The notes below the pieces were generated by a model that made no database searches, was not told where the DNA came from, and saw nothing but the letters and a program-made list of their open reading frames with translations. DNA of 64,000 nt from Trileptium ribeirensis (taxonomy: Eukaryota > Nematoda > Enoplea > Enoplida > Thoracostomopsidae), in contig JASANE010011670.1 of the NCBI GenBank assembly GCA_030248225.1, positions 1-64,000 on the forward strand, read 5' to 3'. This document shows positions 1 to 29,380 of the stretch, piece by piece; the first letter of the stretch is position 1, and the number at the start of each line of letters is the position of its first letter. A program made the position numbers and the translations under genes.

Positions 1-481
1 TTTAAGGTTTTGCGGTAGTTTTAGACGAATGTAAAGGCGTACATTTGCCGTCGATTTATTCATCCATTGAATATTGTATCCAATTGCCAATCGTCAAAAC
101 ACAATGGATCCGCTTGAAGTTTACATCTGACATTTAATAACAACAAAAATGTTTCATATATGTGTATTACAAACAATGCACTACACAATACAGCTCGCTT
201 GTGAACTGCCATTACTATTATTGACATCAACTCCTCTGTTTTAAGGCTTCGCTGTTTGCCTTTATATTAAATCCTGCTATAACATTACCCATTTCAATAA
301 TTACTATAGTTTTGGACAATTCTTTAACAAAATCAATCGAAAGCCTCACTTGTCCATTTCCGGAGATTTAGATGTAATCACAGTCGCTACTATGATCCGT
401 GTTCAAATTTTTGCAGAATATCTGGTATCCTGCACCTTGAATCCCAAATTTTCAATTCTACCATTCAACGCATATAAAGTA

Positions 482-715
482 TTATAAAATACTCGCATGT
501 CCTGTTTTACATGGTAAATATATATTACATGGATATCTGTCATCATTCATAAACAAGGTAGACGATTCCATGTCTAGTGAGCTCAATTTGAACACATTTA
601 ATTTATTTCGTCCTGCATAATCTTCTTGTCTTATTTCCCAAATGTAAATCCTACATGGTAAAGTTCCACTCAAAATTGTCCAATCTACAATTAATAAACA
701 TTTGTTTACAGACAA
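482..715 (-). CDS. Unrecognised 77-aa frame, left arm
   Basis: This open frame translates identically to its mirror at 12104-12337. The product has three Cys in its C-terminal part, a hydrophobic start and no motif I recognise. It lies in a row of short frames read in the same direction. Preservation of the whole frame in both arms is the only support for coding, and recent arm-to-arm gene conversion would give the same result. It may be an exon or a fragment of a longer decayed gene. Confidence 0.35.
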   Translation of the reverse strand: MSVNKCLLIVDWTILSGTLPCRIYIWEIRQEDYAGRNKLNVFKLSSLDMESSTLFMNDDRYPCNIYLPCKTGHASIL

Positions 716-1150
716 TGTTCATAACGTACACCTAATTGCTGGGCAATGAACTCCTGAGCAATGTAAACATTATCTTGGCCTGTTTTCTCGCGTTTGCTCT
801 AGATATGTTTAATTTAAACTCATTAATTTGTACTAAATAATTTTATGGCTTGCTACATTGTAATATCAGCGAATGTGAACTTCATACAAATTTAGACTCA
901 AGTTTAGTTTTAGGCTGAAGGTACTTTTGTTGCAAGTATGCGTCCATGATTACGGAAAAATATACGTTACATTTATGTGATGCCAAAGTTTGTGCCCTCT
1001 TAGCTAAGAAACCACAATCATTAAGAGTATCATCAGACATTTATGTTCCATCTGGCTGGTAGAGACATCCCTCCAAATATTGTTTTAGTTGTTCTGCGCT
1101 TCACGTGTATTACGTACACAACACACACCATCCAAGAGTGATATTTGTTA

Positions 1151-1450
1151 TTACATGGTATAGGTTCGCCATTTATTTTTATCAACTGACGAAACAAATC
1201 CATATTCGAAAATTTTACATGGTGCTACTCTTAAATTTAGATCCAAAATGAGTTTGCGAAACCCTTTTACAATTGTGAAATCAATATAAGCAAATACACC
1301 AGATACATCAATTAAATCAAAAGCACTTTCTCCAGTTTTCAAACGAAATGAATCCACCATATCGGTGCTTGGTAAACCTGTTTCACAAGCGATTTCGAGT
1401 ATTTGTGCTGAAATGATGGATTCATGAACTGGGCGTTTAGTGTTTACCAC
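1151..1450 (-). CDS. Unrecognised 99-aa frame, left arm
   Basis: This is an intact frame from ATG to stop. Its nucleotide sequence appears identical to the mirror copy at 11370-11669 over 300 bp, although elsewhere the arms differ about every 50 bases. The product has mixed hydrophobic and charged composition without low complexity and looks like a folded soluble domain. No family was recognised. It is the most protein-like of the arm frames. Confidence 0.45.
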   Translation of the reverse strand: MVNTKRPVHESIISAQILEIACETGLPSTDMVDSFRLKTGESAFDLIDVSGVFAYIDFTIVKGFRKLILDLNLRVAPCKIFEYGFVSSVDKNKWRTYTM

Positions 1451-1774
1451 GCTTCCAAATTAGCTTTCAACGTCGCATACGTTTGCTATGTTTTGGTTTC
1501 TTTTGTTTGTGATCCTTTTAAGAGTTTTCTTCTGCCTTCAATAGCTTTGTTGAACTGAAACATGACGGTCACGCTATCTTAAATGTTGTATAAGTAGACC
1601 AACTTTTTTAAGTTCTTTACGAGAACCATAAACGTGGATTCATTTTTGCGTCTTTGAAAAATTCTATCTCTTTGAACTCTGTATACAATATTTGAAATTC
1701 CAATAATTATATCATACACCTAATGTCCAATCCCAAAGACCAAATCCAATGTTATTGTGTTCTTGACAGCACCG

Positions 1775-1918
1775 CTAGTTATAACATGTAACAAAGGTTT
1801 GTATATCCCGTTCAGTAACCCTTCTTCCACATGTGAACTCGTTAAGAGCTTGGGTTTTGCGCTGCTCAAGATCAAAATATTCGTTTACAATATGTCTTCC
1901 ATTTCTTAGATGCGAAAC
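1775..1918 (-). pseudogene. Frame fragment, left arm (second part)
   Basis: This is a 47-codon open stretch with no ATG of its own, ending in TAG at 1775-1777. It begins just where the neighbouring frame at 1906-2082 ends, but in another phase, so the two look like pieces of one gene separated by a frameshift. In the right arm one T of a four-T run is missing, which breaks this stretch as well. Function is unknown. Confidence 0.35.
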
Positions 1919-2082
1919 TTAGAAGCCAAAGATAGCTTTAATTTCTCAGAATAATTTGAGATCAGCACGAACACGGCATCCCTGAAATTTCGAAATCCAG
2001 TATTTTTACGTGCGTAACGCAAAAGGCTGTTGGAAATCATAGCCGGTCCGCTCAAATCAAAAACAACTACATCTTTCAGGAT
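1906..2082 (-). pseudogene. Frame fragment, left arm (first part)
   Basis: This minus-strand open stretch ends in TAA at 1906-1908 and has a natural protein composition, with an aliphatic beta-strand-like start and then basic helices. It overlaps the next fragment (1775-1918) in a different phase. An internal ATG follows the first dozen or so codons. No family was recognised. The mirror copy around 10740-10920 carries its own changes. Confidence 0.35.
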
Positions 2083-2146
2083 CTATTGATACCTTTTAAG
2101 AGTATTATACAAGTATTGCAAGTATATAAAAACTATTTACAGATTA

Positions 2147-2729
2147 TGCCTAATTAAACTTAGGTGCGCCCCTCACCATTCCTTTTGCTAGCATTAGCGA
2201 TTCTTGAACGTGTTAGCAGTTTTTCCTTACCATATAAGAGAACATATAATTGGTGTGTTGGGCTCCGCAACCAAAACGTAAAGTAACAGAAAATTGCACT
2301 AGTAACGATTACTTTAAAAAGATTAAGTAACCGATCTGTGACGGTTTGACATTTGACCTGGAAAATTTTTATTCTATTATCGAGCAAAAATTCCTCGTTT
2401 TAGTTTTTAAAATCTGCATATCACATGTAATTTCGCAGACTACACGTATTATCATTAATAAAACGAAATGTGTTACCGTAAAAAACAATGCGGAATGCGA
2501 GTTGCAACGTCGTGCGTTGTGAAACGAGTTTGTGGCCAACCAGCAAATAGGTGCATTGTGTTAGCGAACATAAACTACCCCTGTTTTGCAATGAGTAGCT
2601 CTGTGTTTGCTAATGGACATTGTTGAATTTGGAATTGATTATTGCAATGAATGTTTTGTTCTCTATCAGCGTTTTGTACATAGTGTCAAAACCGGATGGT
2701 ACGGGACGTGGCTTAAGTTTACGTGTGCA
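2147..2729. mobile_element. PIF/Harbinger-like MITE, copy 1 (left arm)
   Basis: The terminal inverted repeats begin TGC and include the AAACTTA/TAAGTTT core. They are flanked by a 3-bp target duplication TTA at 2144-2146 and 2730-2732. TWA target duplications are a hallmark of the PIF/Harbinger superfamily. The element is 583 bp with no transposase frame. The short open frame inside it (2160-2387) is therefore not a gene. Four other copies with the same ends lie in this window. Confidence 0.8.
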
Positions 2730-2934
2730 TTACGACGAGTTTCTACAACATCACCGCTACTGTAAACCAAAGCAACACATTTGTTTAGGGTGAGCTACAT
2801 ACTGTTATGCAATTAATTTTCATAAATTACGGCGTAATTATTTCTGATGTTAATTATAAATACGCGTTATATTAAAGCGTAACATCGCTTCTTAACAAAC
2901 CAACTACATTATCAACTCGGGGTCGTGCGTTAGA

Positions 2935-3307
2935 TTAGCATTTTCCCTTAACCTTTTTTCTCACAATATTCAGGAAATCCGTTCGTTTACATTCTGACCT
3001 TAAGCCAACCAATACCACCTTTTCACTTGAAAATAATAATAATGTGTCTCTAGGTTCAAAATTTCCAAATACCTCTTGTGAAACGTAACATATTATAATA
3101 TAAGCCATTAATTTCACATGATAAATACAATATATCAACGCGGAATTCAATTTTCGGTATTGTCATATTAGTTATTCCGCTTCGACTCTCAATCCTATCC
3201 ATAGTCCTCCCAAAATGTTCTTTCCCATCCATTTGTGAGACGTCTTCTCGACTAGATTTATCGGTGATGTTATGCCCATTACCACAATACTGATCCCATT
3301 TTGACAC
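2935..3307 (-). pseudogene. Unrecognised frame, left arm, frameshifted
   Basis: Two overlapping minus-strand frames (3056-3307 and 2935-3150) together match the single longer frame at 9532-9885 in the other arm, so the left copy has a frameshift near 3056-3150. The encoded sequence is non-repetitive, with an acidic and basic N-terminal part and a hydrophobic C-terminal part. I recognise no family. Confidence 0.4.
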
Positions 3308-3411
3308 CTCCGCTATTAGTGTGTTTTCTGTGCCGATTAGGGTCGTTCGTACATTAGGTAGTCGCTGTAACTTTACGGTAATCCCTCGTTTATTACTGAT
3401 GCTACGCTGTA

Positions 3412-3768
3412 CTACCTTTCCGCTCGATGATTTTGATTTGACGACCCAGCTTCCTTTGTTGTAGAGGGTTTGAATCTTGACATTATCGCCTTGTAGGATT
3501 CATGTTGTTGCGGTACCGAGCTTTGGGGCTTTGTTGCCACTGCTCCACACATTTGTATTTTCTCGACACCGTTGATGGTTATTCGTGCCACGTTGAAGTT
3601 GTTGCATACGCTCCATCCATACCGAAATAACACTAGTTGGGCGCCGTCGGTTGTTGCACAATACTTAGTGTACTCCATACTGTCATTTAATACTGCTATT
3701 ATATAAACACGTCCAACTTCGATGAAAACAAAAATAAAACTGCTAGAGAAGAATAAAGTGTTCTCCAT
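3412..3768 (-). CDS. Unrecognised 118-aa frame, left arm
   Basis: This is an intact ATG-to-stop frame in the left arm. The same sequence in the right arm is split over 9070-9357 and 9183-9437 by a frameshift, so the left copy is the better-preserved one. The product starts with a short hydrophobic Phe-rich stretch, then a mixed domain with several Cys, then a basic, Ser/Gln-rich tail. The order of neighbours is the same in both arms. No family was recognised. Confidence 0.4.
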   Translation of the reverse strand: MENTLFFSSSFIFVFIEVGRVYIIAVLNDSMEYTKYCATTDGAQLVLFRYGWSVCNNFNVARITINGVEKIQMCGAVATKPQSSVPQQHESYKAIMSRFKPSTTKEAGSSNQNHRAER

Positions 3769-3828
3769 TTGTATTAGAATCTGGAGATGTTTTGAGAAAA
3801 AGTAGAAATTTGAAAGTATTTGGCTAAA

Positions 3829-4047
3829 TCAATAATATATGTTAGAGCCAACCGTTTTGTCAGTGTATTTCACTTGGTTGTTGCCATTGAACTTTAAATC
3901 ATTTATATTTTTTAACATCAACTTTATTTTTGTAAAGTTTTGAAACATAAGTGATAAATCTAGCTTTTCTATTGCTTTATACACAACTACCTTGCTTCTA
4001 ACTGGTTCTTTATCATGTAAATGAAAATCATTTTTCATAGTTTCCAA
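3829..4047 (-). CDS. Unrecognised 72-aa Lys-rich frame, left arm
   Basis: This short Lys- and Asn-rich frame is shared with 8785-9009, with small differences in the middle. It sits immediately upstream of the 118-aa frame in reading direction. There is no signal peptide or recognisable motif. Its AT-rich codon use means chance openness is possible. Confidence 0.3.
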   Translation of the reverse strand: METMKNDFHLHDKEPVRSKVVVYKAIEKLDLSLMFQNFTKIKLMLKNINDLKFNGNNQVKYTDKTVGSNIYY

Positions 4048-4480
4048 CTAGCTTACTGGTACTACTGTCATCTCACTGGCCATAATATTGGCTAAAATAA
4101 TGAATTAACCATTTTACAACATACAGTTAGAGTTACACCTTCTTCTTTTACTTGCAATGCTTTTAAGAACTTTATGTTTGGATTTCGTGATTTGTGCTAA
4201 AAAGTATGCAATGTCTACAAACGTGTGAATCAGAGATATGTGTGCAACGTTGATAACAGCTGCAAAAACTTTAGACGATGATCCACCAAAAAACTGTGAC
4301 CCGGTAAATTACAATCAAGACATTATCATATTTTAGAAAAAATTCCTTTTTAAATAAACAAACAGTTGCCGATCGTCTGCGAAGGCATTCTATCGTGCCC
4401 ATAATATATTATTGGTTTCCAGATTTAAACCAAGAAACAAGTACCGAAACGGTTCATTGTTGCCTGGTCAAATGCCCTTG

Positions 4481-4915
4481 TTACAAACTGGTGTTTTGAA
4501 GGCCACATTTACATACCCAAAGTATGCATGATAGACCGATTTCGAGTGTAGGAACAATAATATATTGTTCATTTCGTGTAATACCACGTGTAATACTTTG
4601 CAGTCTAGCATAGTCGGTATGATGGGCACCTCCCAGGAACATAGACATTGTCGGAAATATATTTTGCCAGACATATGTGTAGACTTGATTTGATCGTGCA
4701 ATATGAGTGTGGTGTGATTTTGCCGTTCCAGGAAAATGGGACGAGTCTAAGTGAGATGCAAAACATGGATGGCGTAGCACATGGTTATGACATCGCCCGC
4801 GACGTACCGCGTACGTTACTTCAGCAAACTTGAACATTGTCATACTCTTCAACAAGTCAAATATCATCTGCTCTTCGAAACTGATATATCTGACGTTGCC
4901 GTTTGACAGTACCAA
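4481..4915 (-). CDS. Unrecognised 144-aa frame, left arm
   Basis: This is the longest intact frame in either arm. The N-terminal third reads like an ordered protein and is also present in the right arm at about 7884-8077. The later part contains His, Ser and Cys residues and continues in the left arm only; on the right it is broken into 8037-8321 and 8053-8349. The intact left copy suggests a once-functional gene. Family unknown. Confidence 0.4.
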   Translation of the reverse strand: MVLSNGNVRYISFEEQMIFDLLKSMTMFKFAEVTYAVRRGRCHNHVLRHPCFASHLDSSHFPGTAKSHHTHIARSNQVYTYVWQNIFPTMSMFLGGAHHTDYARLQSITRGITRNEQYIIVPTLEIGLSCILWVCKCGLQNTSL

Positions 4916-5174
4916 TCGCTGTTGGCCTTTGTGTTACTCAACTATTTGTAGAATTGGATTCTTCTGAACGCCAAAAAAATTTCACAAGAGTGTTACTTGA
5001 TTTGATGTGAAAATCAATTACCTCCAAGAGCGAACTAGGTTGTCACGTATGTTAAGTTACATCTATTTATGTACCCATTTATATATTAACGTCCACAGCA
5101 TCGCAATTTTCACCCTCTAGCATTTTGAGCCTACCCAAGACTACCTGTACTGAGCTGAGCCGAGCCAAGAAAAA

Positions 5175-5381
5175 TTACGGCTCAAGCGAGCCGAAACAAG
5201 CCTGTAAAATTCGGCTCGTTCTCACACCTGCAAAGTAGCCGCAGCATGCCAGTATTGCCGAGGGTACATAAAATATATGCTTAGGGTGCTTATATACCAG
5301 AAAGATTACAGCTTTTCTATCGCGGTGTAATAAATACCAACTACACGAAATCCAAAAGGAGACATCGTGTCGTTGAGGCAT
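5175..5381 (-). pseudogene. Left-arm copy of the 47-aa frame
   Basis: The open 68-codon frame here is not the one preserved on the right. The frame starting with ATG at 7456 in the right arm has a stop in the left arm after an insertion in the middle. This copy is probably a decayed version. Next to it (5110-5240) is a tract of short GGCTCG-type repeats on both strands. Confidence 0.3.
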
Positions 5382-5742
5382 AATTGAGTAACCGGTTGTT
5401 AAAATTTGTTACTATAGTATAGTTTTTTCTGAATTCTCAGGCGTGTAACAGCTAGCTGTGTTTACACTACTTGAAATATATTGTAGTTGGTCACTGCGTT
5501 CCGTGCGTGCTGTTGAACCCCTAAGTTTACAAATATTGACATAAACACATGACTAAATATTCCAACTGATGGTAACCGGTTCAGTCCGCTATAAACTCAA
5601 ACAACTTTGAGGATCTCTGGCTTAAACTGTAGCATTAATACATAACCTATCGCTATTTAAGAACCGAACCTCATAATTGAGGCTGATCAAACTATTTTGT
5701 GGTCTGCGCCTAGTAAATTTTTTGCTGATTTGAAATCATAAT

Positions 5743-5958
5743 TTGTCTTCTTTCGTAATTTGTAACGATCGTTGTATTTGTGTTAAAGAAGGCAGATCAG
5801 GATTACTCATAATTATTGAGTTTAAGTCTGGGCCTGTGAGCGGCTGCGAGGAATTTGGAATGACCGATGTAATAAGAAGATTTTATTGGGTGAAAACACT
5901 AAAAACTAACTTGTTGTCAGCATTCAAAAAAATAGTTGGATTGGTATACTATACTTAG
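5743..5958 (+). CDS. Unrecognised frame reading toward the palindrome centre
   Basis: This plus-strand open stretch of about 70 codons reads opposite to most frames of this arm and has no clear ATG at its start. It has a mixed, protein-like composition with three Cys. The mirror copy around 6860-7080 (minus strand) is altered in several places. It could be an exon of a gene reading into the spacer, or a decayed fragment. Confidence 0.3.
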   Translation: MSSFVICNDRCICVKEGRSGLLIIIEFKSGPVSGCEEFGMTDVIRRFYWVKTLKTNLLSAFKKIVGLVYYT

Positions 5959-6202
5959 AGTCACCAACCTAAAGATATGATTTTTAATTTTTATGTTAGG
6001 CCCAAAGCTTAAAACTATTAATTTTAGAAACTCAAAACAAGTAAAATGTGGTATTAGTTAAAAATTAAATTTCAAAAACACTCTTTAAGCTCAATATTTC
6101 AAAACGTTTAAAATTAACATGACGTTGATTCAACAAAATTACTAAGAAAAAAACTCCGCGCCTACTTCCTATCTAAATTATGACACAATTAAACTTTGAG
6201 GT

Positions 6203-6618
6203 GTATTTATAATGTTACTAAAAGGAAAACCTAAGTGCGGTGTATCTGTAGCCAACATCTCCAACTTAGGTTTATGATTAGTGCAAGACTCATATTAGGA
6301 CTTAAGTTTAGCATAAGGCATATGCTTAGTATATCCAGGACGGCAGAGTCTAGATTTCACTTATGGCCTTCAAACTGCCTTCTTTAACACAAATTACCGA
6401 TAATTACCGTCAACGCTTACGATTATAATATCGTAAAATCAAATTATCAAATATCTGGCGATAAGATATCCCTTTTAGAAAGTGGTATAAGTGACTTTGG
6501 GACTACATTTTCATTCGGATATTTCCGTACACCAAGTAAAATCCCAGAAATTTCTGTCACTCGTCAAATGGTTGTTATAATTTTTGTTATTTGGTTTTTG
6601 TTTGCTCATTTGTCTTGT
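6203..6618. other. Central spacer of the palindrome
   Basis: These 416 bp separate the two arms and are not mirrored between them. They are AT-rich, with no convincing gene. A 19-nt stretch at 6375-6393 is an exact reverse complement of 5777-5795 in the left arm, while the matching place in the right arm (about 7026-7045) has diverged. The spacer therefore has its own partial relationship to the left arm. Confidence 0.8.
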
Positions 6619-6859
6619 ACCTCAAAGTTTAATTGTGTCATAATTTAGATAGGAAGTAGGCGCGGAGTTTTTTTCTTAGTAATTTTGTTGAATCAACGTC
6701 ATGTTAATTTTAAACGTTTTGAAATATTGAGCTTAAAGATTGTTTTTGAAATTTGAGTTTTAACTAATACCACATTTTACTTGTTTTGAGTTTTACCTAA
6801 AATTAATAGTTTTAAGCTTTGGGCCTAACATAGAACTAAAAATCATATCTTTAGGTTGG

Positions 6860-7080
6860 TAACTATAAATTGCTGACATACCAATCCAACTATTATTTCG
6901 AATGCTACTACTTAGTTTGAAGTGTTTTCACCCAATAAAATCTTCTTATTACATCGTAGTTTCCAAATTCCTCGCAGCGACGCTCACAGGCCCAGACTTT
7001 AAACTAGATAATTATGAGTAATCCTGATATCCTTCTAAAACACAAATACGACGAACGCTACAAATTACGAAGAAGACAAA
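6860..7080 (-). pseudogene. Mirror copy of the centre-facing frame
   Basis: This is the reverse complement of 5743-5958 with substitutions and small indels (for example near 6900 and 7030), so the left-arm frame is not kept. Divergence here is visibly higher than in the outer part of the arms. Confidence 0.35.
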
Positions 7081-7455
7081 TTATGATTTCAAATCAGCAA
7101 AAAATTTACTCGGCGCAGACCACAAAATAGTTTGATCAGCCTCAATTATGAGGCTCGGTTCTTAAATAGCGATAGGTTATGTATTAATGCTACAATTTAA
7201 GCCAGAGATCCTCAAAGTTGTTTGAGTTTATAGCGGACTGAACCGGTTACAGTCAGTTGGAATATTTAGTCATGTGTTTATGTCAATATTTGTAAACTTA
7301 GGGGTTCAACAGCACGCACGGAACGCAGTGACCAACTACAATATATTTCAAGTAGTGTAAACACAGCTAGCTGTTACACGCCTAGAATTCAGAAAAAACT
7401 ATACTATAGTAACAAATTTTAACAACGGGTTACTCAATTATGCCTCAACGACACG

Positions 7456-7599
7456 ATGTCTCCTTTTCGATTTCGTGTAGTTGGTATTTATTACACCGCG
7501 ATAGAAAAGCTGATCTTTCTGGTATATAAGCACCCTAAGCATATATTTATGTACCCTAGGCAATACTGGCATGCAGATGCAGCTACTTTGCAGATGTGA
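7456..7599 (+). CDS. Unrecognised 47-aa frame, right arm
   Basis: This small frame runs from ATG at 7456 to TGA at 7597-7599. Composition is rich in aromatic, Val and Ile residues with His/Lys, typical of a folded fragment. The left-arm copy is interrupted. Immediately downstream (7590-7710) is a tract of GGCTCG-type repeats that may be the edge of an old element. Confidence 0.3.
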   Translation: MSPFRFRVVGIYYTAIEKLIFLVYKHPKHIFMYPRQYWHADAATLQM

Positions 7600-7883
7600 G
7601 AACGAGCCGAATTTTACAGGCTTGTTTCGGCTCGGCTCGACCGTAATTTTACTTGGCTCGGCTCAGCTCGGTACAGGTAGTCTTGGGTCGGCTCGAAATG
7701 CTAGAGGGTGAAAATTGCGATGCTGTGGACGTTAATATATAAATGGGTACATAAATAGATGTAACTTAACATACGTGACAACCTAGTTCGCTCTTGGAGG
7801 TAATTGATTTTCACATCAAATTAAGTAACACTCTTGTGAAATTTTTTGCGTTCAGAAGAATCCAATTCTACAAATCGTTGAGT

Positions 7884-8349
7884 AACACAAAGGCCAACAG
7901 CGATTGGTACTGTTGGACGGCAACGTCAGATATATCAGTTTCGAAGAGCAGATGATATTTGACTTGCTGAAGAGTATGACAATGTTCAAGTTTGCTGAAG
8001 TAACGTCCGCGGTACGTCGCGGGCGATGTCATAACCATGTGCTACGCCATCCATGTTTTTGCATTACTCACTTTTAGACTCGTCCCATTTTCCTGGAACG
8101 GCAAAATCACACCACACTCATATTGTGCACGATCAAATCAAGTCTACACATATGTCTGGCAAAATATATTTCCGACAATGTCTATGTTCCTGGGAGGGTC
8201 CATTCATACCGACTATGCTAGACTGCAAAGTATTACACGTGGTATTACACGAAATGAACAATATATATTATTGTTCCTACACTTTCGAAATCGGTCTATC
8301 ATGCATACTTTGGGTATGTAAATGTGGCCTTCAAAACACCAGTTTGTAA
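7884..8349 (+). pseudogene. Right-arm copy of the 144-aa frame, broken
   Basis: The N-terminal part is open to a TAG at 8075-8077 in the frame matching 4481-4915. The remainder continues in other phases (8037-8321 and 8053-8349). At least one frameshift separates the parts, whereas the left-arm copy is continuous. Confidence 0.45.
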
Positions 8350-8784
8350 CAAGGGCATTTGACCAGGCAACAATGAACCGTTTCGGTACTTGTTTCTTCA
8401 TTTAAATCTGGAAACCGATAATATATTATGGGCACGATAGAATATATTCGCCGACGATCGGCAACTGTTTGTTATTACTAAAAAGGAATTTTTTCTAAAA
8501 TATGATAATGTCTTGATTGTAATTTACCCGGGTCACAGTTTTTTGGTGGATCATCGTCTAAAGTTTTTGCAGCTGTTATCAACGTTGCACACATATCTCT
8601 GATTCACACGTTTGTAGACATTGCATACTTTTTAGCACAAATCACGAAATCCAAACATAAAGTTCTTAAAAGCATTGCAAGTAAAAGAAGAAGGTGTAAC
8701 TCTAACTGTATGTTGTAAAATGGTTAATTCATTATTTTAGCCAATATTATGGCCAGTGAGATGACAGTAGTACCAGTAAGCTAG

Positions 8785-9009
8785 TTGGAAACTATGAAAA
8801 ATGGTGGTTTACATGATAAAGAACCAGTTAGAAGCAAGGTAGTTGTGTATAAAGCAATAGAAAAGCTAGATTTATCACTTATGTTTCTCAAAACTTTACG
8901 AAATAAAGCTAAACTAATGTTAAAAAATATAAATGATTTAAAGTTCAATGGCAACAACCAAGTGAAATACACTGACAAAACGGTTGGCTCTAACATATAT
9001 TTGATTTAG
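8785..9009 (+). CDS. Unrecognised 74-aa Lys-rich frame, right arm
   Basis: This is the mirror of 3829-4047, intact from ATG to stop but with small compensating differences in the middle. It is followed 60 bases later by the start of the next frame (9070). No known motif. Confidence 0.3.
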   Translation: METMKNGGLHDKEPVRSKVVVYKAIEKLDLSLMFLKTLRNKAKLMLKNINDLKFNGNNQVKYTDKTVGSNIYLI

Positions 9010-9069
9010 CCAAATACTTTTTTTCAAATGTCTACTTTTATCCATCAAAACATCTAGATTCTAATACAA

Positions 9070-9437
9070 ATGGAGAACACTTTATTCTTCAAAAAGTATC
9101 ACAGTTTTATTTTTGTTTTCATCGAAGTTGGACGTGTTTATATAATAGCAGTATTAAATGACAGTATGGAGTACACTAAGTATTGTGCAACAACCGACGG
9201 CGCCCAACTAGTGTTATTTCGGTCTGGATGGAGCGTATGCAACAACTTCAACGTGGCACGAATAACCATCAACGGTGTCAAATACAAATGTGTGGAGCAG
9301 TGGCAACAAAGCGAGAAAGCTCGGTACCGCAACAACATGAATCCTACAAGGCGATAATGTCAAGATTCAAACCCTCTCAACAAAGGAAGCTGGGTCGTCA
9401 AATCAAAATCATCGAGCGGAAAGGTAGTACAGCGTAG
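9070..9437 (+). pseudogene. Right-arm copy of the 118-aa frame, frameshifted
   Basis: The first part is open at 9070-9357 and the C-terminal part is open in another phase at 9183-9437. The left-arm copy (3412-3768) is continuous. The shift lies near 9280-9300. Confidence 0.5.
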
Positions 9438-9531
9438 CATCAGTAATAAACGAGGGATTACCGTAAAGTTACAGCAACTACCTCATGTACGAGCGACCCT
9501 AATCGGCACAGAAAACACACTAATAGCGGAG

Positions 9532-9885
9532 GTGTCGAAATGGGATCAGTATTGTGGTAATGGGCATAACATCACCGATAAATCTAGTCGAGACGTCTCA
9601 CAAATGGATGGGAGAGAACATTTTGGGAGGACTATGGATAGGATTGAGAGTCGAAGCGGAATAACTAATATGACAATACCGAAAATTGAATTCCGCGTTG
9701 ATATATTGTATTTATCATGTGAAATTAATGGCTTATATTATAATATGTTACGTTTCACAAGAGGTATTTGGAAATTTAAACCTAGAGACACATTATTATT
9801 ATTTTCAAGTGAAAAGGTGGTATTGGTTGGCTTAAGGTCAGAATGTAAACGAACGGGTACCCTGAATATTGTGAGAAAAAGGTAA
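9532..9885 (+). CDS. Unrecognised 117-aa frame, right arm
   Basis: The frame stays open upstream of the assigned start to about 9440, giving roughly 150 open codons in all, one of the longest in the window outside LINEs. The left-arm copy is frameshifted. The sequence is non-repetitive and protein-like, with Cys in the N-terminal and C-terminal parts. Family not recognised. Confidence 0.4.
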   Translation: MSKWDQYCGNGHNITDKSSRDVSQMDGREHFGRTMDRIESRSGITNMTIPKIEFRVDILYLSCEINGLYYNMLRFTRGIWKFKPRDTLLLFSSEKVVLVGLRSECKRTGTLNIVRKR

Positions 9886-10100
9886 GGGAAAATGCTAATC
9901 TAAGCACGACCCCGAGTTGATAATGTAGTTGGTTTGTTAAGAAGCGGTGTTACACTTAATATAACGCGTCTTTATAATTAACATAGAAATAATTACGCCG
10001 TAATTTATGAAAATTAATTGCATAACAGTATGTAGCTCACCCTAAACAAATGTGTTGCTTTGGTTTACAGTAGCGGTGATGTTGTAGAAACTCGTCGTAA

Positions 10101-10677
10101 TGCACGCGTAAACTTAAGCCACGTCCCGTACCGTCCTGTTTTGACACTATGTACAAAACGCTGTTAGAAAACAAAACATTCATTGCAATAATCAATTCCA
10201 AATTCAACAATGTCCATTAGCAAACACAGAGCTACTCATTGCAAAACGGGGTAGTTTATGTTCGCTAACACAATGCACCTATTTGCTGGTTGGCCACAAA
10301 CTCGTTTCACAACGCACAACGTTGCAACTCGCATTCCGCATTGTTTCTTACGGTAACACATTTCGTTTTATTAATGATAATACGTGTAGTCTGCGAAATT
10401 ACATGTGATATGCAGATTTTAAAAACTAAACGAGGAATTTTTGCTCGATAATAGAATAAAAATTTTCCAGGTCAAATGTCAAACCGTCACAGATCGGTTA
10501 CTTAATCTTTTTAAAGTAATCGTTACTAGTGCAATTTTCTGTTACTTTACGTTTTGGTTGCATTGCCCAACACACCAATTATATGTTCTCTTATATGGTA
10601 AGGAAAGGCTGACACGTCCAAGAATCGCTAATGCTAGAAGGGAATGGTGAGGGGCGCACCTTAAGTTTAATTAGGCA
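10101..10677. mobile_element. PIF/Harbinger-like MITE, copy 2 (right arm)
   Basis: This is the mirror of copy 1: TAA target duplications at 10098-10100 and 10678-10680, ends TGC...GCA, 577 bp. Because both arms carry it at the same place with the same duplications, the insertion predates the formation of the palindrome, or was copied by arm-to-arm conversion. The open frame at 10441-10650 lies inside it and is not a gene. Confidence 0.8.
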
Positions 10678-10739
10678 TAATCTGTAAATAGTTTTTATAT
10701 ACTTGCAATACTTGTATAATACTCTTAAAAGGTATCAAT

Positions 10740-11060
10740 AGATCCTGAAAGATGTAGTTGTTTTTGATTTGAGCGGACCGGCTATTGAGTTTCCAACAGC
10801 CTTTTGCGTTACGCACGTAAAAATACTGGATTTCGAAATTTCAGATCCGTGTCGTGCTGATCTCAAATTATTCTGAGAAATTAAAGCTATCTTTGGCTTC
10901 TAAGTTTCGCATCTAAGAAATGGAAGACATATTGTAAACAAATATTTGATCTTGAGCAGCGCAAAACCCAAGCTCTTAACGAGTTCACATGTGGAAGAAG
11001 GGTTACTGAACGGGATATACAAACCTTTGTTACATGTTATAACTAGCGGTGCTGTCAAGA
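10740..11060 (+). pseudogene. Right-arm copies of the two overlapping fragments
   Basis: This is the mirror of 1775-2082. Relative to the left arm there is one missing T in a T-run near 10948, and there are changes near 10785 and 10845, so neither fragment stays open throughout. The order and direction of the fragments match the left arm. Confidence 0.4.
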
Positions 11061-11369
11061 ACACAATAACATTGGATTTGGTCTTTGGGATTGGACATAG
11101 GTGTATGATATAATTATTGGAATTTCAAATATTGTATACAGAGTTCAAAGAGATAGAATTTTTCAAAGACGCAAAAATGAATCCACGTTTATGGTTCTCG
11201 TAAAGAACTTAAAAAAGTTGGTCTACTTATACAACATTTAAGATAGCGTGACCGTCATGTTTCAGTTCAACAAAGCTATTGAAGGCAGAAGAAAACTCTT
11301 AAAAGGATCACAAACAAAAGAAACCAAAACATAGCAAACGTATGCGACGTTGAAAGCTAATTTGGAAGC

Positions 11370-11669
11370 GTGGTAAACACTAAACGCCCAGTTCATGAAT
11401 CCATCATTTCAGCACAAATACTCGAAATCGCTTGTGAAACAGGTTTACCAAGCACCGATATGGTGGATTCATTTCGTTTGAAAACTGGAGAAAGTGCTTT
11501 TGATTTAATTGATGTATCTGGTGTATTTGCTTATATTGATTTCACAATTGTAAAAGGGTTTCGCAAACTCATTTTGGATCTAAATTTAAGAGTAGCACCA
11601 TGTAAAATTTTCGAATATGGATTTGTTTCGTCAGTTGATAAAAATAAATGGCGAACCTATACCATGTAA
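11370..11669 (+). CDS. Unrecognised 99-aa frame, right arm
   Basis: This intact frame is identical in protein sequence to 1151-1450 and apparently identical in DNA. The upstream 300 bp holds further short open stretches in the same direction, including one ending near 11240. Family unknown. Confidence 0.45.
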   Translation: MVNTKRPVHESIISAQILEIACETGLPSTDMVDSFRLKTGESAFDLIDVSGVFAYIDFTIVKGFRKLILDLNLRVAPCKIFEYGFVSSVDKNKWRTYTM

Positions 11670-12103
11670 TAACAAATATCACTCTTGGATGGTGTGTGTT
11701 GTGTACGTAATACACGTAAGCGCAGAACAACTAAAACAATATTTGGAGGGATGTCTCTACCAGCCAGATGGAACATAAATGTCTGATGATACTCTTAATG
11801 ATTGTGGTTTCTTAGCTAAGAGGGCACAAACTTTGGCATCACATAAATGTGACGTATATTTTTCCGTAATCATGGACGCATACTTGCAACAAAAGTACCT
11901 TCAGCCTAAAACTAAACTTGAGTCTAAATTTGTATGAAGTTCACATTCGCTGATATTACAATGTAGCAAGCCATAAAATTATTTAGTACAAATTAATGAG
12001 TTTAAATTAAACATATCTAGAGCAAACGCGAGAAAACAGGCCAAGATAATGTTTACATTGCTCAGGAGTTCATTGCCCAGCAATTAGGTGTACGTTATGA
12101 ACA

Positions 12104-12337
12104 TTGTCTGTAAACAAATGTTTATTAATTGTAGATTGGACAATTTTGAGTGGAACTTTACCATGTAGGATTTACATTTGGGAAATAAGACAAGAAGATT
12201 ATGCAGGACGAAATAAATTAAATGTGTTCAAATTGAGCTCACTAGACATGGAATCGTCTACCTTGTTTATGAATGATGACAGATATCCATGTAATATATA
12301 TTTACCATGTAAAACAGGACATGCGAGTATTTTATAA
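12104..12337 (+). CDS. Unrecognised 77-aa frame, right arm
   Basis: This is the mirror of 482-715 and encodes the same residues. It is the last frame before the outer edge of the arm; about 480 bp of arm sequence without a clear frame follow. Family unknown. Confidence 0.35.
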   Translation: MSVNKCLLIVDWTILSGTLPCRIYIWEIRQEDYAGRNKLNVFKLSSLDMESSTLFMNDDRYPCNIYLPCKTGHASIL

Positions 12338-12798
12338 TACTTTATATGCGTTGAATGGTAGAATTGAAAATTTGGGATTCAAGGTGCAGGATACCAGATA
12401 TTCTGCAAAAATTTGAACACGGATCATAGTAGCGACTGTGATTACATCTAAATCTCCGGAAATGGACAAGTGAGACTTTCGATTGATTTTGTTAAAGAAT
12501 TGTCCAAAACTATAGTAATTATTGAAATGGGTAATGTTATAGCAGGATTTAATATAAAGGCAAACAGCGAAGCCTTAAAACAGAGGAGTTGATGTCAATA
12601 ATAGTGATGGCAGTTGACAAGCGAGTTGTATTGTGTAGTGCATTGTTTGTAATACACATATATGAAACACTTTTGTTGTTATTAAATGTCAGATGTAAAC
12701 TTCAAGCGGATCCATTGTGTTTTGACGATTGGCAATTGGATACAATATTCAATGGATGAATAAATCGACGGCAAATGTACGCCTTTACATTCGTCTAA

Positions 12799-13119
12799 AA
12801 CTACCGCGAAACCTTAAATGAAGGGCACAAATGGTTTAACTGTTCGGCGTATTCAAACATTTGTGGATCAACTTATCAATGCCTATCAGCAGGACTTATA
12901 TTAGTAAAAGCGGCCTGTATTTTTTGTGGATATACCTTCAGCAACCATTGTGTGGCAGCGAGGATTATGAAACATTTGACAACGTACCATTTCGATAAAG
13001 TATTTGTCCAACTTTACATCGACGTTGATATTGGCGAAGCATCGAACTGGAATATTTTGCGCAATATTTATCTTCAAGACGAAATAGTGTATTGGCAAGA
13101 CAAAGTGGTGGAATTTTAA
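12799..13119 (+). pseudogene. Unrecognised open stretch just outside the palindrome
   Basis: About 106 open codons run from inside the arm edge into single-copy DNA and end in TAA at 13117-13119. The only in-frame ATG is at 12967, leaving 50 codons after it. The N-terminal half holds several Cys; the C-terminal half is acidic and aromatic. It overlaps the next stretch (13088-13318) in another phase, as if frameshifted. I recognise no family and do not assign a function. Confidence 0.35.
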
Positions 13120-13318
13120 CGTCACTGTTAAGAAACAGGCGACTTCATCGATGGCATATCGGATGTCGAAAAAAAAAGCTCATCACACCCCAACAACAAC
13201 GTCAAGCAGTGCAGGTGCTGGTGGGATTCATTATAAAAAAACAAAAAAGGGACATTTATTTGATTATGCATTGTACAAAATCTGTTTGTGGTATCCTAAA
13301 TATATTTGTATTGTATAA
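13088..13318 (+). pseudogene. Unrecognised open stretch, basic and Ser/Thr-rich
   Basis: This open stretch follows a stop at 13085-13087 and ends at TAA 13316-13318. Its middle is Lys-, Thr- and Ser-rich and its end is hydrophobic and aromatic. An AATAAA sits 23 bases after the stop (13341-13346), where a polyadenylation signal is expected. It is probably the 3' part of the same decayed gene as 12799-13119. Confidence 0.35.
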
Positions 13319-13340
13319 TCAAAATATTGTAAATTTATTT

Positions 13341-13346
13341 AATAAA
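13341..13346 (+). promoter_or_regulatory. Candidate polyadenylation signal
   Basis: AATAAA lies shortly after the stop at 13318 and is followed by an A-rich run. Such hexamers are common in AT-rich DNA, so position is the main support. Confidence 0.35.
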
Positions 13347-13473
13347 AAATGAAAAACACATTACGGTAACTATTAGGTCGTCTGATAATTCCCTATGCAG
13401 GAATGACATATTTATAAAATGGCTGTTCTTTTAGTAATTTCAATCAGTCTTGTATATGATTTCGGTCGATTAA

Positions 13474-13761
13474 GTATCTACAATTTATTCAGCACTTCCA
13501 AATGGAAATGTTCACACCAAATGGAAAGTTTCCTACAATTCTCTTCTCATCGGTGATTACGAGGAAAATGTATACGAAACAGTCTACAATGGCGACGAAC
13601 ACTTCGTTCGACAAGATCTGGAGCACTTTAAAATGGTCAACAAAATCGTTGGTTATCGAGATTGGACGGGAAATGCTGACTACATTATGCGCGCGGTTAC
13701 AGAAGGCAATACGGTAGTCATGTCATGCGTTTACGATGATCAAGTTCATGCGCGGCAGTGA
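13474..13761 (+). pseudogene. Unrecognised open stretch, about 95 codons
   Basis: This frame is open from the TAA at 13471-13473 to TGA at 13759-13761 with no early ATG. The composition is strongly protein-like (Asp, Glu, Tyr, Asn, Val). A second phase takes over at 13736-13834 and has a natural C-terminal look, so a frameshift near 13740-13760 is likely. An AATAAA follows at 13875-13880. No family recognised. Confidence 0.4.
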
Positions 13762-13834
13762 ACGTATCAATTGGTATACCAATATGCTACGAAACGAGAA
13801 TAGAAATGAAGATATTGAATTGATACTTTTATAG
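13736..13834 (+). pseudogene. Likely C-terminal continuation after a frameshift
   Basis: This is a 32-codon stretch with ATG at 13736 and TAG at 13832-13834, charged and Asn/Glu-rich. It is followed 41 bases later by AATAAA. It overlaps the end of 13474-13761 in another phase. Confidence 0.35.
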
Positions 13835-13874
13835 GCGCTTTGTATGTTCTGTATTTGTTATATTTCAAGTTATA

Positions 13875-13880
13875 AATAAA
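13875..13880 (+). promoter_or_regulatory. Candidate polyadenylation signal
   Basis: AATAAA lies 41 bases after the stop at 13834 and is followed by an A-run at 13886-13891. Together with the preceding frame this looks like the end of a transcription unit. Confidence 0.35.
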
Positions 13881-13899
13881 GAATGAAAAAAACGTCGTG

Positions 13900-14690
13900 G
13901 AAACCTATAGCCGTATGATGAGGCCCTCCGTAAAGCCGAAACGTTTTACCATTGCCCATGTCTCATCCAATCTAGTTCAAATAAGGTTGTTTGTATATAG
14001 CAATTGTTAATAGGTATGCTTGAATATCATGTGTGCATGTTTGTTTGTATATGTGAACGTATGTTAAATATATATACACAACCAGATGTCACTGTTACTT
14101 CATATGCATTTGCATATGTATTTATATACTGGTATATACATGTATGTGTAGAAAACATGTATACTTATACATATACATATAAACAATATACATCCAAAAG
14201 CCAATTCCCAACCACTGCCGACCTCCAGCGGTAAATCGCTATTTTTCGTCTACTCAAATGAACAGCTATATGATGTCCTGGGTTACAGTTCCTTGAATGT
14301 TTTCAATGGCACTATGTTACCTGACTGAGCTTTTGCACTCACTATACTCTGGAAACCACAACCGGCAAATTTTTACTGAAAATTTAGTTTATCTCTTAAA
14401 GCCGATGAGGGTGGCCAATATCTTACTAAGTTCAATCAGACCTTGACTAGGGTTTTACGGAGTATAATTGCCGATAAGTTTATGCTAGATGTGTGTGATA
14501 TGTGAGATTTTTAGTCAAAAAAACGTTATGTCTTTCATCTACATTGATGTACTTCGGTTAGATTATTGCAAAGCTGATCTTTGTGTTCATTTGGGTCTTT
14601 TCTTTTGTCGTATTTCACATCTTACAGGTAACAGATTAAAATCAAGTAACCGCATAACATAGCATCTTCTTAAACGTAAAATAAATCATA
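13900..14690. other. No gene seen; TA/CA-rich stretch
   Basis: The part at 14000-14200 is rich in alternating TATA, CATA and TGTA steps and gives a spurious open frame of Tyr, Thr and Val residues. I see no splice-supported exon. Confidence 0.5.
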
Positions 14691-19643: not shown

Positions 19644-22600
19644 TAGCATAGGTGTCGGTAGAGAGTAGAGGGGTACCCCTTAAGCGTCGCAAATCCATAT
19701 TTACCACTATGTGAAGGCTCTGCTATTCTGTAGCATAGGTGTTGGTAGAGGGTAGAGAAGTACCCCTTAGGCGTCGCGAATCCATATTTACCACTATGTG
19801 AAGGCTCTGCTATTCTGTAGCATAGGTGTCGGTAGAGGGTAGAGGGGTAACCCTTAAGCGTCGCGAACCATACTTACCACTATGTGAAGGCTCTGCTATT
19901 CTGTAGCATAGGTGTCGGTAAAGGGTAGAGAGTTACCCCTTAAGCGTCGCGAATCCATATTTTCCACTATGTGAAGGCTCTGCTATTCTGTAGCATAGGT
20001 GTCAGTAGAGGGTAGAGAGGTACCCCTTAAGCGTCGCAAATGCATATTTACTACTATGTGAAGGCTCCTCTATTCTGTAGCATAGGTGTCGGTAGAGGGT
20101 AAAGGGGTACCCTTAAGCGTCGCGAATCCATATTTACCGCTATGTAAAGACTCTGCTATTCTGTAGCATAGGTGTCGGTAGAGGGTAGAGGGCACCTCTT
20201 AAGCGTCGCAAATGCACATTTACCACTATGTGAAGGCTCCTCTATTCTGTAGCATAGGTGTCGGTAGAGGGTAGAGGGGTACCCCTTAAGCGTCGCGAAT
20301 CCATATTTACCCCTATGTGAAGGCTCTGCTATTCTGTAGCATAGGTGTCGGTAGAGGGGTACCCCTTAAGCGTCGCGAATCCATATTTACCACTATGTGA
20401 AGATTCTGCTATTCTGTAGCATAGGTGTCGGTAGGTGGTAGAGAGGTACCCCTGAAGCGTCGCAAATGCATATTTACCACTATGTGAAGGCTCCTCTATT
20501 CTGTAGCATAGGTGTCGGTAGATGGTAGAGGGGTGCCCCTTAAGCGTCGCGAATCCATATTTACCGCTATGTAAAGGCTCTGCTATTCTGTAGCATAGGT
20601 GTCGGTAGAGGGTAGATGGTACCCCTTAAGCGTAGCAAATGCACATTTACCACTATGTGAAGGCTCCTCTATTCTGTAGCATAGGTGTCGGTAGAGGGTA
20701 GAGGGGTACCCCTTAAGCGTCGCGAATCCATATTTACCACTATGTGAAGGCTCTGCTATTCTGTAGCATAGGTTTCGGTAGAGGGTAGAGGGGTACCCCT
20801 TAAGCGTCGCGAATTCATATTTACCACTATGCGAAGGCTCTGCTATTCTGTAGCATAGGTGTCGGTAGATGGTAGAGAGGTACCCCTTAAGCGTCGCAAA
20901 TGCATATTTACCACTATGTGAAGGCTCCTCTATTCTGTAGCATAGGTGTCGGTAGATGGTAGAGGGGTACCCCTTAAGCGTCGCGAATCCATATTTACCA
21001 CTATGTGAAGGCTCTGCTATTCTGTAGCATAGGTGTCGGTAGAGGGCAGAGAGGTACCCCTTAAGCGTCGCAAATCCATATTTACCACTATGTGAAGACT
21101 CTGCTATTCTGTAGCATAGGTGTCGGTAGAGGGTAGAGAGGTACCGCTTAAGCGTCGCAAATGCATATTTACCACCATGTGAAGGCTCCTCTATTCTGTA
21201 GCATAGGTGTCGGTAGAGGGTAGAGGGGTACCCCTTAAGCGTCGCGAATCCATATTTACCACTATGTGAAGGCTCTGCTATTCTGTAGCATAGGTTTTGG
21301 TAGAGGGTAGAGGGGTACCCCTTAAGCGTCGCGAATTCATATTTACCACTATGCGAAGGCTCTGCTATTCTGTAGCATAGGTGTCGGTAGATGGTAGGGA
21401 GGTACCCCTTAAGCGTCGCAAATGCATATTTACCACTATGTGAAGGCTCCTCTATTCTGTAGCATAGGTGTCGGTAGATGGTAGAGGGGTACCCCTTAAG
21501 CGTCGCGAATCCATATTTACTACTATGTGAAGGCTCTGCTATTCTGTAGCATAGGTGTCGGTAGAGGGCAGAGAGGTACCCCTTAAGCGTCGCAAATCCA
21601 TATTTACCACTATGTGAAGGCTCTGCTATTCTGTAGCATAGGTGTCGGTAGAGGGTAGAGAGGTACCTCTTAAGCGTCGCAAATGCATATTTACCACCAT
21701 GTGAAGGCTCCTCTATTCTGTAGCATAGGTGTCGGTAGAGGGTAGAGGGGTACCCCTTAAGCGTCGCGAATCCATATTTACCACTATGTGAAGGCTCTGC
21801 TATTCTGTAGCATAGGTGTCGGTAGAGGGTAGAGAGGTAACCCTTAAGCGTCGCAAATCCATATTTACCACTATGTGAAGGCTCTGCTATTCTGTAGCAT
21901 AGGTGTCGGTAGTGGGTAGAGGGTACCCTTTAAGCGTCGCAAATGCATATTTACCACTATGTGGAGGCTCCTCTATTCTGTAGCATAGGTGTCGGTAGAG
22001 GGTAGAGGGGTACCCCTTAAGCGTCGCGAATACATATTTACCACTATGTGAAGGCTCTGCTATTCTGTAGCATAGGTGTCGGTAGAGGGTAGAGGGGTAC
22101 CCCTTAAGCGTCGCGAATCCATATTTACCACTATGTGAAGGCTCTGTTATTCTGTAGCATAGGTGTCGGTAGAGGGTAGAGAGGTACCCCTTAAGCGTCG
22201 CAAATGCATATTTACCACTATGTGAAGGCTCCTCTATTCTGTAGCATAGGTGTCGGTAGATGGTAGAGGGGTACCCCTTAAGCGTCGCAAATGCATATTT
22301 ACCACTATGTGAAGGCTCCTCTATTCTGTAGCATAGGTGTCGGTAGATGGTAGAGGGGTACCCCTTAAGCGTCGCGAATCCATATTTACCACTATGTGAA
22401 GGCTCTGCTATTCTGTAGCATAGGTGTCGGTAGAGGGTAGAGAGGTGCCCCTTAAGTGTTGCAAATGCATATTTACCACTATGTGACAGCTCCTCTATTC
22501 TGTAGCATAGGTGTCGGTAGAGGGTAGAGGGGTACCTCTTAAGCGTCACGAATCCATATTTACCACTATGTGAAGGCTTTGCTATTCTGTAGCATAGGTG

Positions 22601-23890
22601 TCGGTAGAGGGTAGAGAGGTACCCCTTAAGCGTCGCAAATGCATATTTACCACTATGTGAAGGCTCCTCTATTCTGTAGCATAGGTGTCGGTAGATGGTA
22701 GAGGGGTACCCCTTAAGCGTCGCGAATCCATATTTATCACTATGTGAAGGCTCTGCTGTTCTGTAGCATAGGTGTCGGTAGAGGGTAGTGAGGTACCCCT
22801 TAAGCGTCGCAAATCCATATTTACCACTATGTGAAGGCTCTGCTATTCTGTAGCATAGGTGTCGGTAGAGGGTAGAGAGGTGCCCCTTAAGTGTTGCAAA
22901 TGCATATTTACCACTATGTGAAGGCTCCTCTATTCTGTAGCATAGGTGTCGGTAGATGGTAGAGGGGTACCCCTTAAGCGTCGCAAATGCATATTTACCA
23001 CTATGTGAAGGCTCCTCTATTCTGTAGCATAGGTGTCGGTAGATGGTAGAGGGGTACCCCTTAAGCGTCGCGAATCCATATTTACCACTATGTGAAGGCT
23101 CTGCTATTCTGTAGCATAGGTGTCGGTAGAGGGTAGAGAGGTGCCCCTTAAGTGTTGCAAATGCATATTTACCACTATGTGAAGGCTCCTCTATTCTGTA
23201 GCATAGGTGTCGGTAGATGGTAGAGGGGTACCCCTTAAGCGTCGCGAATCCATATTTACCACTATGTGAAGGCTCCTCTATTCTGTAGCATAGGTGTCGG
23301 TAGATGGTAGAGGGGTACCCCTTAAGCGTCGCGAATCCATATTTACCACTATGTGAAGGCTCTGCTATTCTGTAGCATAGGTGTCGGTAGAGGGTAGAGA
23401 GGTGCCCCTTAAGTGTTGCAAATGCATATTTACCACTATGTGAAGGCTCCTCTATTCTGTAGCATATGTGTCGGTGGAGGGTAGAAGGGTACCTCTTAAG
23501 CGTCGCGAATCCATATTTACCACTATGTGAAGGCTTTGCTATTCTGTAGCATAGGTGTCGGTAGAGGGTAGACGGGTACCCCTTAAGCGTCGCGAATCCA
23601 TATTTACCACTATGTGAAGGCTCTGCTATTCTGTAGCATAGGGGTCGGTAGAGGGTAGAGAGGCACCCCTTAAGCGTCGCAAATGCATATTTACCACTAT
23701 GTGAAGGCTCCTCTATTCTGTAGCATAGGTGTCGGTAGAGGGTAGAGGGGTACCCCTTAAGCGTCGCGAATACATATTTACCACTATGTGAAGGCTCTGC
23801 TATTCTGTAGCATAGGTGTCGGTAGAGGGTAGAGGGTACCTCTTAAGCGTCGCAAATGCATATTTACCACTATGTGAAGGCTCTGCTATT
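19644..23890. repeat. 87-bp satellite array, about 49 units
   Basis: The unit TAGCATAGGTGTCGGTAGAG... repeats every 87 bp with few indels. Subtypes alternate: GCGAATCC with CTCTGCT, GCAAATCC with CTCTGCT, and GCAAATGC with CTCCTCT. Rare markers repeat at exact multiples of 87: GGTTT[C/T]GG at 20771 and 21293 and ACCACCATG at 21171 and 21693 (522 bp, six units); TGCCCCTTAAGTGTT at 22446, 22881, 23142 and 23403 (435, 261 and 261 bp). Because 87 is 29 codons, some frames stay open across units (21887-22549), which is not evidence of a protein. Confidence 0.97.
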
Positions 23891-23989
23891 CCATTGTGTT
23901 ATGGCATAACCTTGCCATTTAAACATCTTAAGCCCTAACTCAAGTTATCCTCTTTAATATTTTCTTATATGCGTGGATTATGTTGTGAG

Positions 23990-29370: not shown

Positions 29371-29380
29371 TCAAAATTCA

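What the first reader, a model, noticed from the sequence alone, without database searches (positions are those of the whole stretch)
1..12819. Giant imperfect palindrome with about 6.2-kb arms and a 416-bp spacer
Two arms face each other across 6203-6618, carry the same gene-like frames and the same MITE, and are only a few percent different. The differences include substitutions as well as indels, so this is not a simple fold-back copy of one molecule. Ampliconic sex-chromosome palindromes, foldback elements and integrated linear DNA genomes with inverted repeats are possible explanations.
Basis: partly seen in the sequence, partly recalled or inferred. Interest (0 to 1): 0.85.

Follow-up and report, generated by a model that had tools for sequence, protein, structure and literature searches.

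The report
Contig-end fold-back over decayed Polinton
The giant palindrome is in the sequence but sits at the very start of an assembled contig and looks most like a folded-back copy made during sequencing or assembly, while the DNA it duplicates is a decayed virus-like transposon (Polinton type) carrying two unexpected genes, NADAR and a TATA-binding-protein relative.

Summary
The palindrome is in the sequence: window 1-6202 against the reverse complement of 6619-12818, 96.7% identical, 416-bp spacer. But window base 1 is base 1 of contig C7725 in a 687-Mb, 20,229-contig genome, so the left arm ends only because the contig does. With 16 paralogous loci as outgroups, 58 of 65 polarisable differences are changes in the left, contig-end arm and 7 in the right; two equal copies or alleles should split evenly. 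One of 18 sampled contig starts, C7726, has a 97.4% inverted repeat that also begins at base 1. Best reading: a fold-back sequencing or assembly artefact. A real inverted duplication with second-arm base-calling errors is not excluded; no reads were available. The arms are not terminal repeats: they hold a decayed fragment of a dispersed Polinton/Maverick-like element. Other copies encode packaging ATPase, NADAR and TBP-like proteins in that order; one has an rve+chromo integrase and a PolB-like ORF upstream. First-look candidates: 2317 for NADAR, 975 for TBP (150 of each scored). My paper searches showed no report of NADAR or TBP in a Polinton.

The parts
1..6202 (-). Left arm, cut off by the contig start; carries most of the derived differences; probable fold-back copy of the right arm
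   Evidence: alignment; contig base 1; polarity
6203..6618 (.). 416-bp spacer, once between the arms; 6207-6374 belongs to a dispersed short repeat; a relative at C9989 runs from arm into spacer (to 6321, and 6376-6428)
6619..12818 (+). Right arm, continuous with the rest of the contig; closer to the paralogs
   Evidence: 15 of 16 paralog loci give it more total bits; 13 of 16 a higher percent identity
8244..14254 (+). Decayed Polinton-like fragment; runs without a break through 12818, where the alignment of the arms ends
   Evidence: dispersed copies at about 67-78% identity; right limit approximate (13.95-14.25 kb)
8244..8373 (+). Remnant of the 3' part of a packaging ATPase gene
   Evidence: read by eye against ATPase ORFs of copies; Pox_A32 over its cut-off in copy L056
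9229..9645 (+). NADAR domain, broken frame (left-arm counterpart about 3180-3600, minus strand)
   Evidence: PF08719 E=1.2e-8, 35.8 bits against a cut-off of 35.1, read with X at each stop
9691..10092 (+). TBP-like region with both TBP repeats, broken frame (left-arm counterpart about 2735-3140, minus strand)
   Evidence: PF00352 E=1.7e-6 for the second repeat; solved TBP structures, best E 3.2e-5 and 6.4e-5
10100..10680 (.). MITE-like repeat nested in the element (left-arm counterpart about 2150-2730)
   Evidence: stand-alone copies at 79-86%; several copies of the element pass from 10100 to about 10679 without it
10680..12760 (+). Region matching two ORFs of the copies that I take for capsid genes (penton-like, then major-capsid-like)
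   Evidence: capsid identity rests on position and recalled resemblance only: no significant Pfam, PHROG or PDB match

Best explanation
The palindrome is most likely a fold-back artefact at the start of contig C7725. Reading from the right, the true sequence runs through the right arm to its inner end. The molecule, read or assembly path then jumped 416 bp ahead onto the opposite strand and read back over the spacer and the arm, so the spacer appears once and the arm twice, inverted, until the contig ends. The left arm is a poorly resolved copy of the right. What is duplicated is host DNA with a decayed Polinton-like fragment that once encoded NADAR and TBP-like proteins. Shown: contig position, geometry, one-sided differences, one other contig with the same sign, and the gene content of other copies of the element. 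Inferred: that the fold arose in amplification, library preparation, base calling or assembly rather than in the animal.
For: Window base 1 is contig base 1. Of 106 difference events, 65 could be polarised: 58 left-derived, 7 right-derived (nominal p=4e-11). By single sites, 56 left-derived, 14 right-derived, 2 ties of 72 informative among 131. 15 of 16 paralog loci give the right arm more total bits; counted per locus, 14 favour the right arm and 2 are level. 35 of 106 events are multi-base or complex. C7726, 1 of 18 sampled contig starts, has a 97.4% inverted repeat from its base 1 with a 2.1-kb spacer. Outside C7725 the best of the scored candidates reach only 88% over 115 bp, 74% and 86%. 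At C9989 a relative of the inner arm runs straight into the spacer, with no inverted copy in the 20 kb seen. Such chimeras are documented: PMC6218980 (passages) for amplified DNA and missed SMRTbell adaptors; PMC13141652 (abstract) for nanopore ligation libraries, 0.18-7.33% of reads.
Against: The arms are not identical, and they differ least near the contig end, where coverage should be thinnest, and most beside the fold. Seven events favour a right-arm change, two of them with 4 of 4 outgroups, so the left arm is not purely right arm plus error. 17 of 18 sampled contig starts show no such repeat, and the one that does, C7726, was picked as the numbering neighbour of C7725 (with C7724); the 16 taken at round numbers have none. 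Three of 16 paralog loci have a slightly higher percent identity to the left arm. Real inverted duplications also cause nanopore errors near the junction (PMC7229812, passages). Reads, depth and sequencing method were not available.
Confidence: 0.75

Rival explanations
1. A real inverted duplication in the animal's genome, at least 6.2 kb per arm, made by a fold-back repair or replication event. The left arm looks worse because reads entered from the right and base calling degraded after the fold.
For: Geometry with a loop present once; differences densest beside the junction, as described for native inverted duplications (PMC7229812, passages); sharp inner boundaries; 7 right-derived events; 17 of 18 contig starts without such a repeat.
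Against: The contig ends inside the arm; no scored place in the assembly continues the left arm at high identity; a second contig begins the same way.
Confidence: 0.16
2. The two arms are the two parental alleles of one locus, misjoined head to head by the assembler.
For: About 2% substitutions, an uneven pattern and short indels; no further copy at high identity among the scored candidates.
Against: Alleles should share derived changes about equally; 58 to 7 is seen. Runs of two to four consecutive substitutions hold 57 of the 131 substitutions.
Confidence: 0.07
3. The arms are long terminal inverted repeats of a foldback transposon or of an integrated linear DNA virus.
For: The arms carry a Polinton-like element, and Polintons have terminal inverted repeats (recalled).
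Against: Arm limits (6619 and the contig start) do not match the element's limits (about 8244 and 13.95-14.25 kb); the arms hold internal genes; the copies seen elsewhere are not palindromic (short loci).
Confidence: 0.02

Closest known systems
Palindromic (inverted) chimeric long reads and the assembly errors they cause (PMC6218980, PMC13141652)
   Same: Inverted copy of one locus, ending where the contig ends
   Different: The arms differ by about 3%, most next to the fold; the sequencing method of this assembly is unknown to me
Polinton/Maverick elements and adintoviruses of animals
   Same: rve+chromo integrase, A32-type packaging ATPase and a PolB-like ORF with KxxxNxxFG and DTDS motifs on one contig; many dispersed copies
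   Different: NADAR and TBP-like genes between the ATPase and the capsid-like region; capsid genes, protease and terminal repeats not verified
NADAR genes of other viruses (PMC9503650, passages)
   Same: A virus-like element with a stand-alone NADAR gene
   Different: The passages name phages, NCLDVs (phycodnaviruses, mimiviruses, iridoviruses, ascoviruses) and RNA viruses; the words Polinton, Maverick and adinto occur 0 times in the main text

Membership tests
Fold-back sequencing or assembly artefact | Inverted copy reaches exactly to a contig end | tested here: met
   window = C7725:1-64000
Fold-back sequencing or assembly artefact | Differences lie on the terminal copy | tested here: met
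   for the most part; 58 left-derived and 7 right-derived events
Fold-back sequencing or assembly artefact | Recurs at other contig ends of the same assembly | tested here: inconclusive
   1 of 18 contig starts (first 5 kb each), and that one is the numbering neighbour; 0 of the 16 at round numbers
Fold-back sequencing or assembly artefact | No independent reads cross the fold into new flanking DNA | not testable with these tools
   no reads held
Ampliconic sex-chromosome palindrome | Sex-linked, two true copies kept alike by gene conversion | not testable with these tools
   no male/female data; one-sided differences speak against two equal copies
Foldback transposon | Other copies with the same inverted arms | tested here: not met
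   39 loci scanned (some overlapping, 3-10 kb long); apart from L043 only inverted repeats of at most 217 bp at 79-83%
Polinton/Maverick (the element in the arms) | Retroviral-type integrase with chromodomain | tested here: met
   rve 6.2e-11 and Chromo 8.8e-12 in one copy, C520; not in the window fragment
Polinton/Maverick (the element in the arms) | A32-type packaging ATPase | tested here: met
   Pox_A32 26.3 bits, cut-off 22.8, in L056; below the cut-off in L032; Walker A and B motifs
Polinton/Maverick (the element in the arms) | Protein-primed family B DNA polymerase | tested here: inconclusive
   601-aa ORF on C520 with KxxxNxxFG and DTDS motifs; strict region II motif not found; no Pfam, PDB or PHROG match
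Polinton/Maverick (the element in the arms) | Double-jelly-roll major capsid protein and penton | tested here: inconclusive
   ORFs in the expected place; best line Capsid_N E=0.12, not significant; no PDB match
Polinton/Maverick (the element in the arms) | Terminal inverted repeats and target-site duplication | not tested
   element ends not mapped; whole copies were not put together

The most novel reading that the evidence does not exclude
A very abundant Polinton/Maverick-like lineage in this animal genome has NADAR and a TATA-binding-protein relative as regular genes next to its packaging ATPase. NADAR would strip ADP-ribose that host defence puts on nucleic acids; the TBP relative would give the element its own promoter recognition. 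Hundreds to perhaps thousands of copies remain, many with open frames.
Probability: 0.75. Interest if true: 0.65.

Novelty: new variant of a known kind. Interest (0 to 1): 0.42.

Why it matters
It warns that a palindrome with substitutions and indels between its arms can still be a fold-back artefact, and it gives a test that needs no reads: polarise the arm differences with paralogs. Underneath lies something more interesting: a Polinton-like element that carries NADAR and TBP-like genes in great number. If confirmed, it extends viral NADARs and viral TBPs to Polintons of an animal and offers a natural system to ask what NADAR does against eukaryotic defence. The novelty grade refers to that element; the palindromic arrangement itself I judge not to be a real feature of the animal's genome.

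Tried and rejected
Foldback element or terminal repeats: element limits and arm limits disagree. Alleles: one-sided differences. RNA and tRNA genes: none found. Taxon: a LINE reverse transcriptase gave hits of at most 50% identity; COX1 gave only a decayed, apparently nuclear copy, without a match in the plasmid collection, so the animal is not named. Viral contigs: no match for a spacer 30-mer, the LINE or the ATPase; the tool says that records near this genome may be left out. Protein database: none for the broken NADAR/TBP frame or an intact TBP-like ORF. Capsid-like alignment against PDB: none. In one search the broken frame showed NADAR below its cut-off and TBP only at E=0.066; TBP became clear. 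Pfam on six frames of 13.3-18.3 kb showed nothing significant.

The polarity of the C7726 palindrome could not be tested: the search did not complete. Nor did a genome-wide search for the PolB family.
Full report
1. Observation. The window pairs 1-6202 with the reverse complement of 6619-12818 at 96.67% over 6253 columns. By MAFFT there are 131 substitutions in 6154 aligned bases and 48 gaps of 1-6 bases, leaving out a 12-base overhang. The spacer is 6203-6618, 416 bp.

2. Where it lies. The window is contig C7725, bases 1-64000, of a 687,459,628-base genome in 20,229 contigs; the contig is 147,866 bases long. So the left arm stops at base 1 of the contig. The right arm does not end at 12818 in any natural sense: the dispersed element in it runs on to about 13.95-14.25 kb.

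3. Are the arms two equal copies? I took 16 loci of the same genome that match parts of the arms (about 69-86% identical) as outgroups. Differences between the arms were grouped into 106 events: 42 single substitutions, 29 pure indels, 17 multi-base substitutions, 18 complex. 65 could be polarised: 58 are changes in the left arm and 7 in the right (two-sided binomial p=4e-11). 41 could not. By substitution sites: 56 left, 14 right, 2 ties among 72 informative of 131. 15 of 16 loci give the right arm more total bits, L017 being the exception; by percent identity 13 of 16 favour the right arm and L020, L022 and L024 the left. Per locus, event counts favour the right arm in 14 and are level in 2. 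The outgroups are related to each other and events are not wholly independent, so the p-value is nominal. In the 800 bases next to the fold all 20 informative sites are left-derived (one outgroup), though one indel there goes the other way. Of 131 substitutions, 57 lie in runs of two to four consecutive bases. Two neutral duplicates or two alleles should share changes about equally. The right arm is itself broken by stops and frame breaks, so selection on it is a poor explanation of the skew.

4. A control. I took the first 5 kb of 18 other contigs (12, 6): 16 at round numbers and the two numbering neighbours C7724 and C7726. C7726 has an inverted repeat, 1-895 against 3894-3012, at 97.4%, again beginning at base 1. 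The other 17 have none of 100 bp or more. Repeats not completed within 5 kb would be missed. In the other loci scanned, only inverted repeats of at most 217 bp at 79-83% were found.

5. Geometry. At C9989:18682-19569 an old relative of the inner arm runs into spacer sequence (window 5457-6321 at 75%, of which 6087-6321 at 83%, and 6376-6428 at 83%), with no inverted copy in the 20 kb seen. The junction 6202/6203 therefore looks ancestral and 6618/6619 looks like the break. This is the shape of a strand that reached the end of the arm, skipped 416 bases and came back on the other strand.

6. Mechanism. Such inverted chimeras are known from amplified DNA and missed adaptors (PMC6218980, passages) and from nanopore ligation libraries (PMC13141652, abstract); PMC13265396 was seen in a search listing only. 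Errors concentrated near an inverted junction are described for nanopore reads of inverted duplications (PMC7229812, passages), so the error pattern by itself does not prove an artefact. I put 0.75 on artefact, 0.16 on a real duplication, 0.07 on misjoined alleles and 0.02 on long terminal repeats.

7. What is in the arms. The right arm from 8244 on is a dispersed repeat: 2009 first-look candidates for 6619-10800 (40 scored; this includes the MITE-like repeat) and 807 for 10800-14200 (40 scored). With X at each stop, one frame holds NADAR (9229-9645, 35.8 bits, cut-off 35.1) and TBP; solved TBP structures match both TBP repeats. Copies elsewhere have open frames: packaging ATPase, two small ORFs, NADAR, TBP-like, then two ORFs that I take for capsid genes. 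In L056, Pfam gives NADAR 1.8e-40, TBP 1.1e-32 and Pox_A32 over its cut-off; upstream on the same contig lies an integrase with rve and Chromo. A 601-aa ORF further upstream has PolB-like motifs but no profile match. I call it Polinton/Maverick-like; capsid identity and terminal repeats are unverified. A second lineage (L053-L055) has ATPase and NADAR, with another ORF where TBP would be in L054 and L055 and no TBP seen in L053.

8. Numbers. NADAR: 2317 candidates, 150 scored, 150 over the cut-off, 137 of them without a stop inside the match (my count of the rows). TBP: 975 candidates, 150 scored, all over the cut-off; the best, on C9496, at 110 bits with a second piece 2.4 kb away, is probably the host gene; the rest score at most 63 bits. 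In the two lists 36 of 150 NADAR rows have a TBP row downstream on the same strand within 1.5 kb, and 36 of the 37 contigs in both lists are paired that way. As only the best 150 of each were scored, this is a floor.

9. Literature. Searches of the held library: NADAR domain with TATA-binding protein, 0 papers; NADAR with Polinton, 0; NADAR with adintovirus, 0; NADAR with Maverick, 15, of which 10 titles were listed, none about animal or viral Mavericks, none opened; Polinton with TATA-binding protein, 3, of which I read passages of PMC10675990, where TBP genes sit sporadically in mirusvirus-like elements, and did not open the other two; Polinton with TBP, 2, not opened. [quoted passage not shown] PMC11125620 (passages) reports that NADARs reverse guanine ADP-ribosylation and occur in many animal groups. 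Most subscription papers are not held, so this is no proof of novelty.

10. The functions of NADAR and TBP here are inferred from their families: reversal of nucleic-acid ADP-ribosylation, and promoter recognition. Neither was tested.

Noticed in passing
window 19644-23891: Tandem array of an 87-bp unit, about 49 copies, GC 0.46-0.49 against roughly 0.36-0.39 around it; the long ORFs on it follow from the 29-codon period.
   Followed up: no
window 35001-36000: Extreme strand asymmetry: GC skew 0.757 and AT skew 0.298 in one kilobase.
   Followed up: no
window 45870-48028 and 38366-38899: LINE-type reverse transcriptase (RVT_1 1.4e-30, minus strand, with a frame break) and a separate endonuclease-like ORF.
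   Followed up: partly
window 27894-28218 and 29371-29727: Short tandem arrays, 108 bp x 3 and 72 bp x 5.
   Followed up: no
L043 (C7726:1-5000), 1-895 and 3012-3894: Second inverted repeat beginning at base 1 of a contig, 97.4% identical, 2.1-kb spacer.
   Followed up: partly
L053, L054, L055: A second NADAR-bearing element lineage; the ATPase is 38% identical to that of L056 in the two compared (L053, L055), and no TBP was seen.
   Followed up: partly
L059 (C17193:64551-65610): The only COX1 match in the assembly is a decayed, apparently nuclear copy; no mitochondrial contig turned up.
   Followed up: partly
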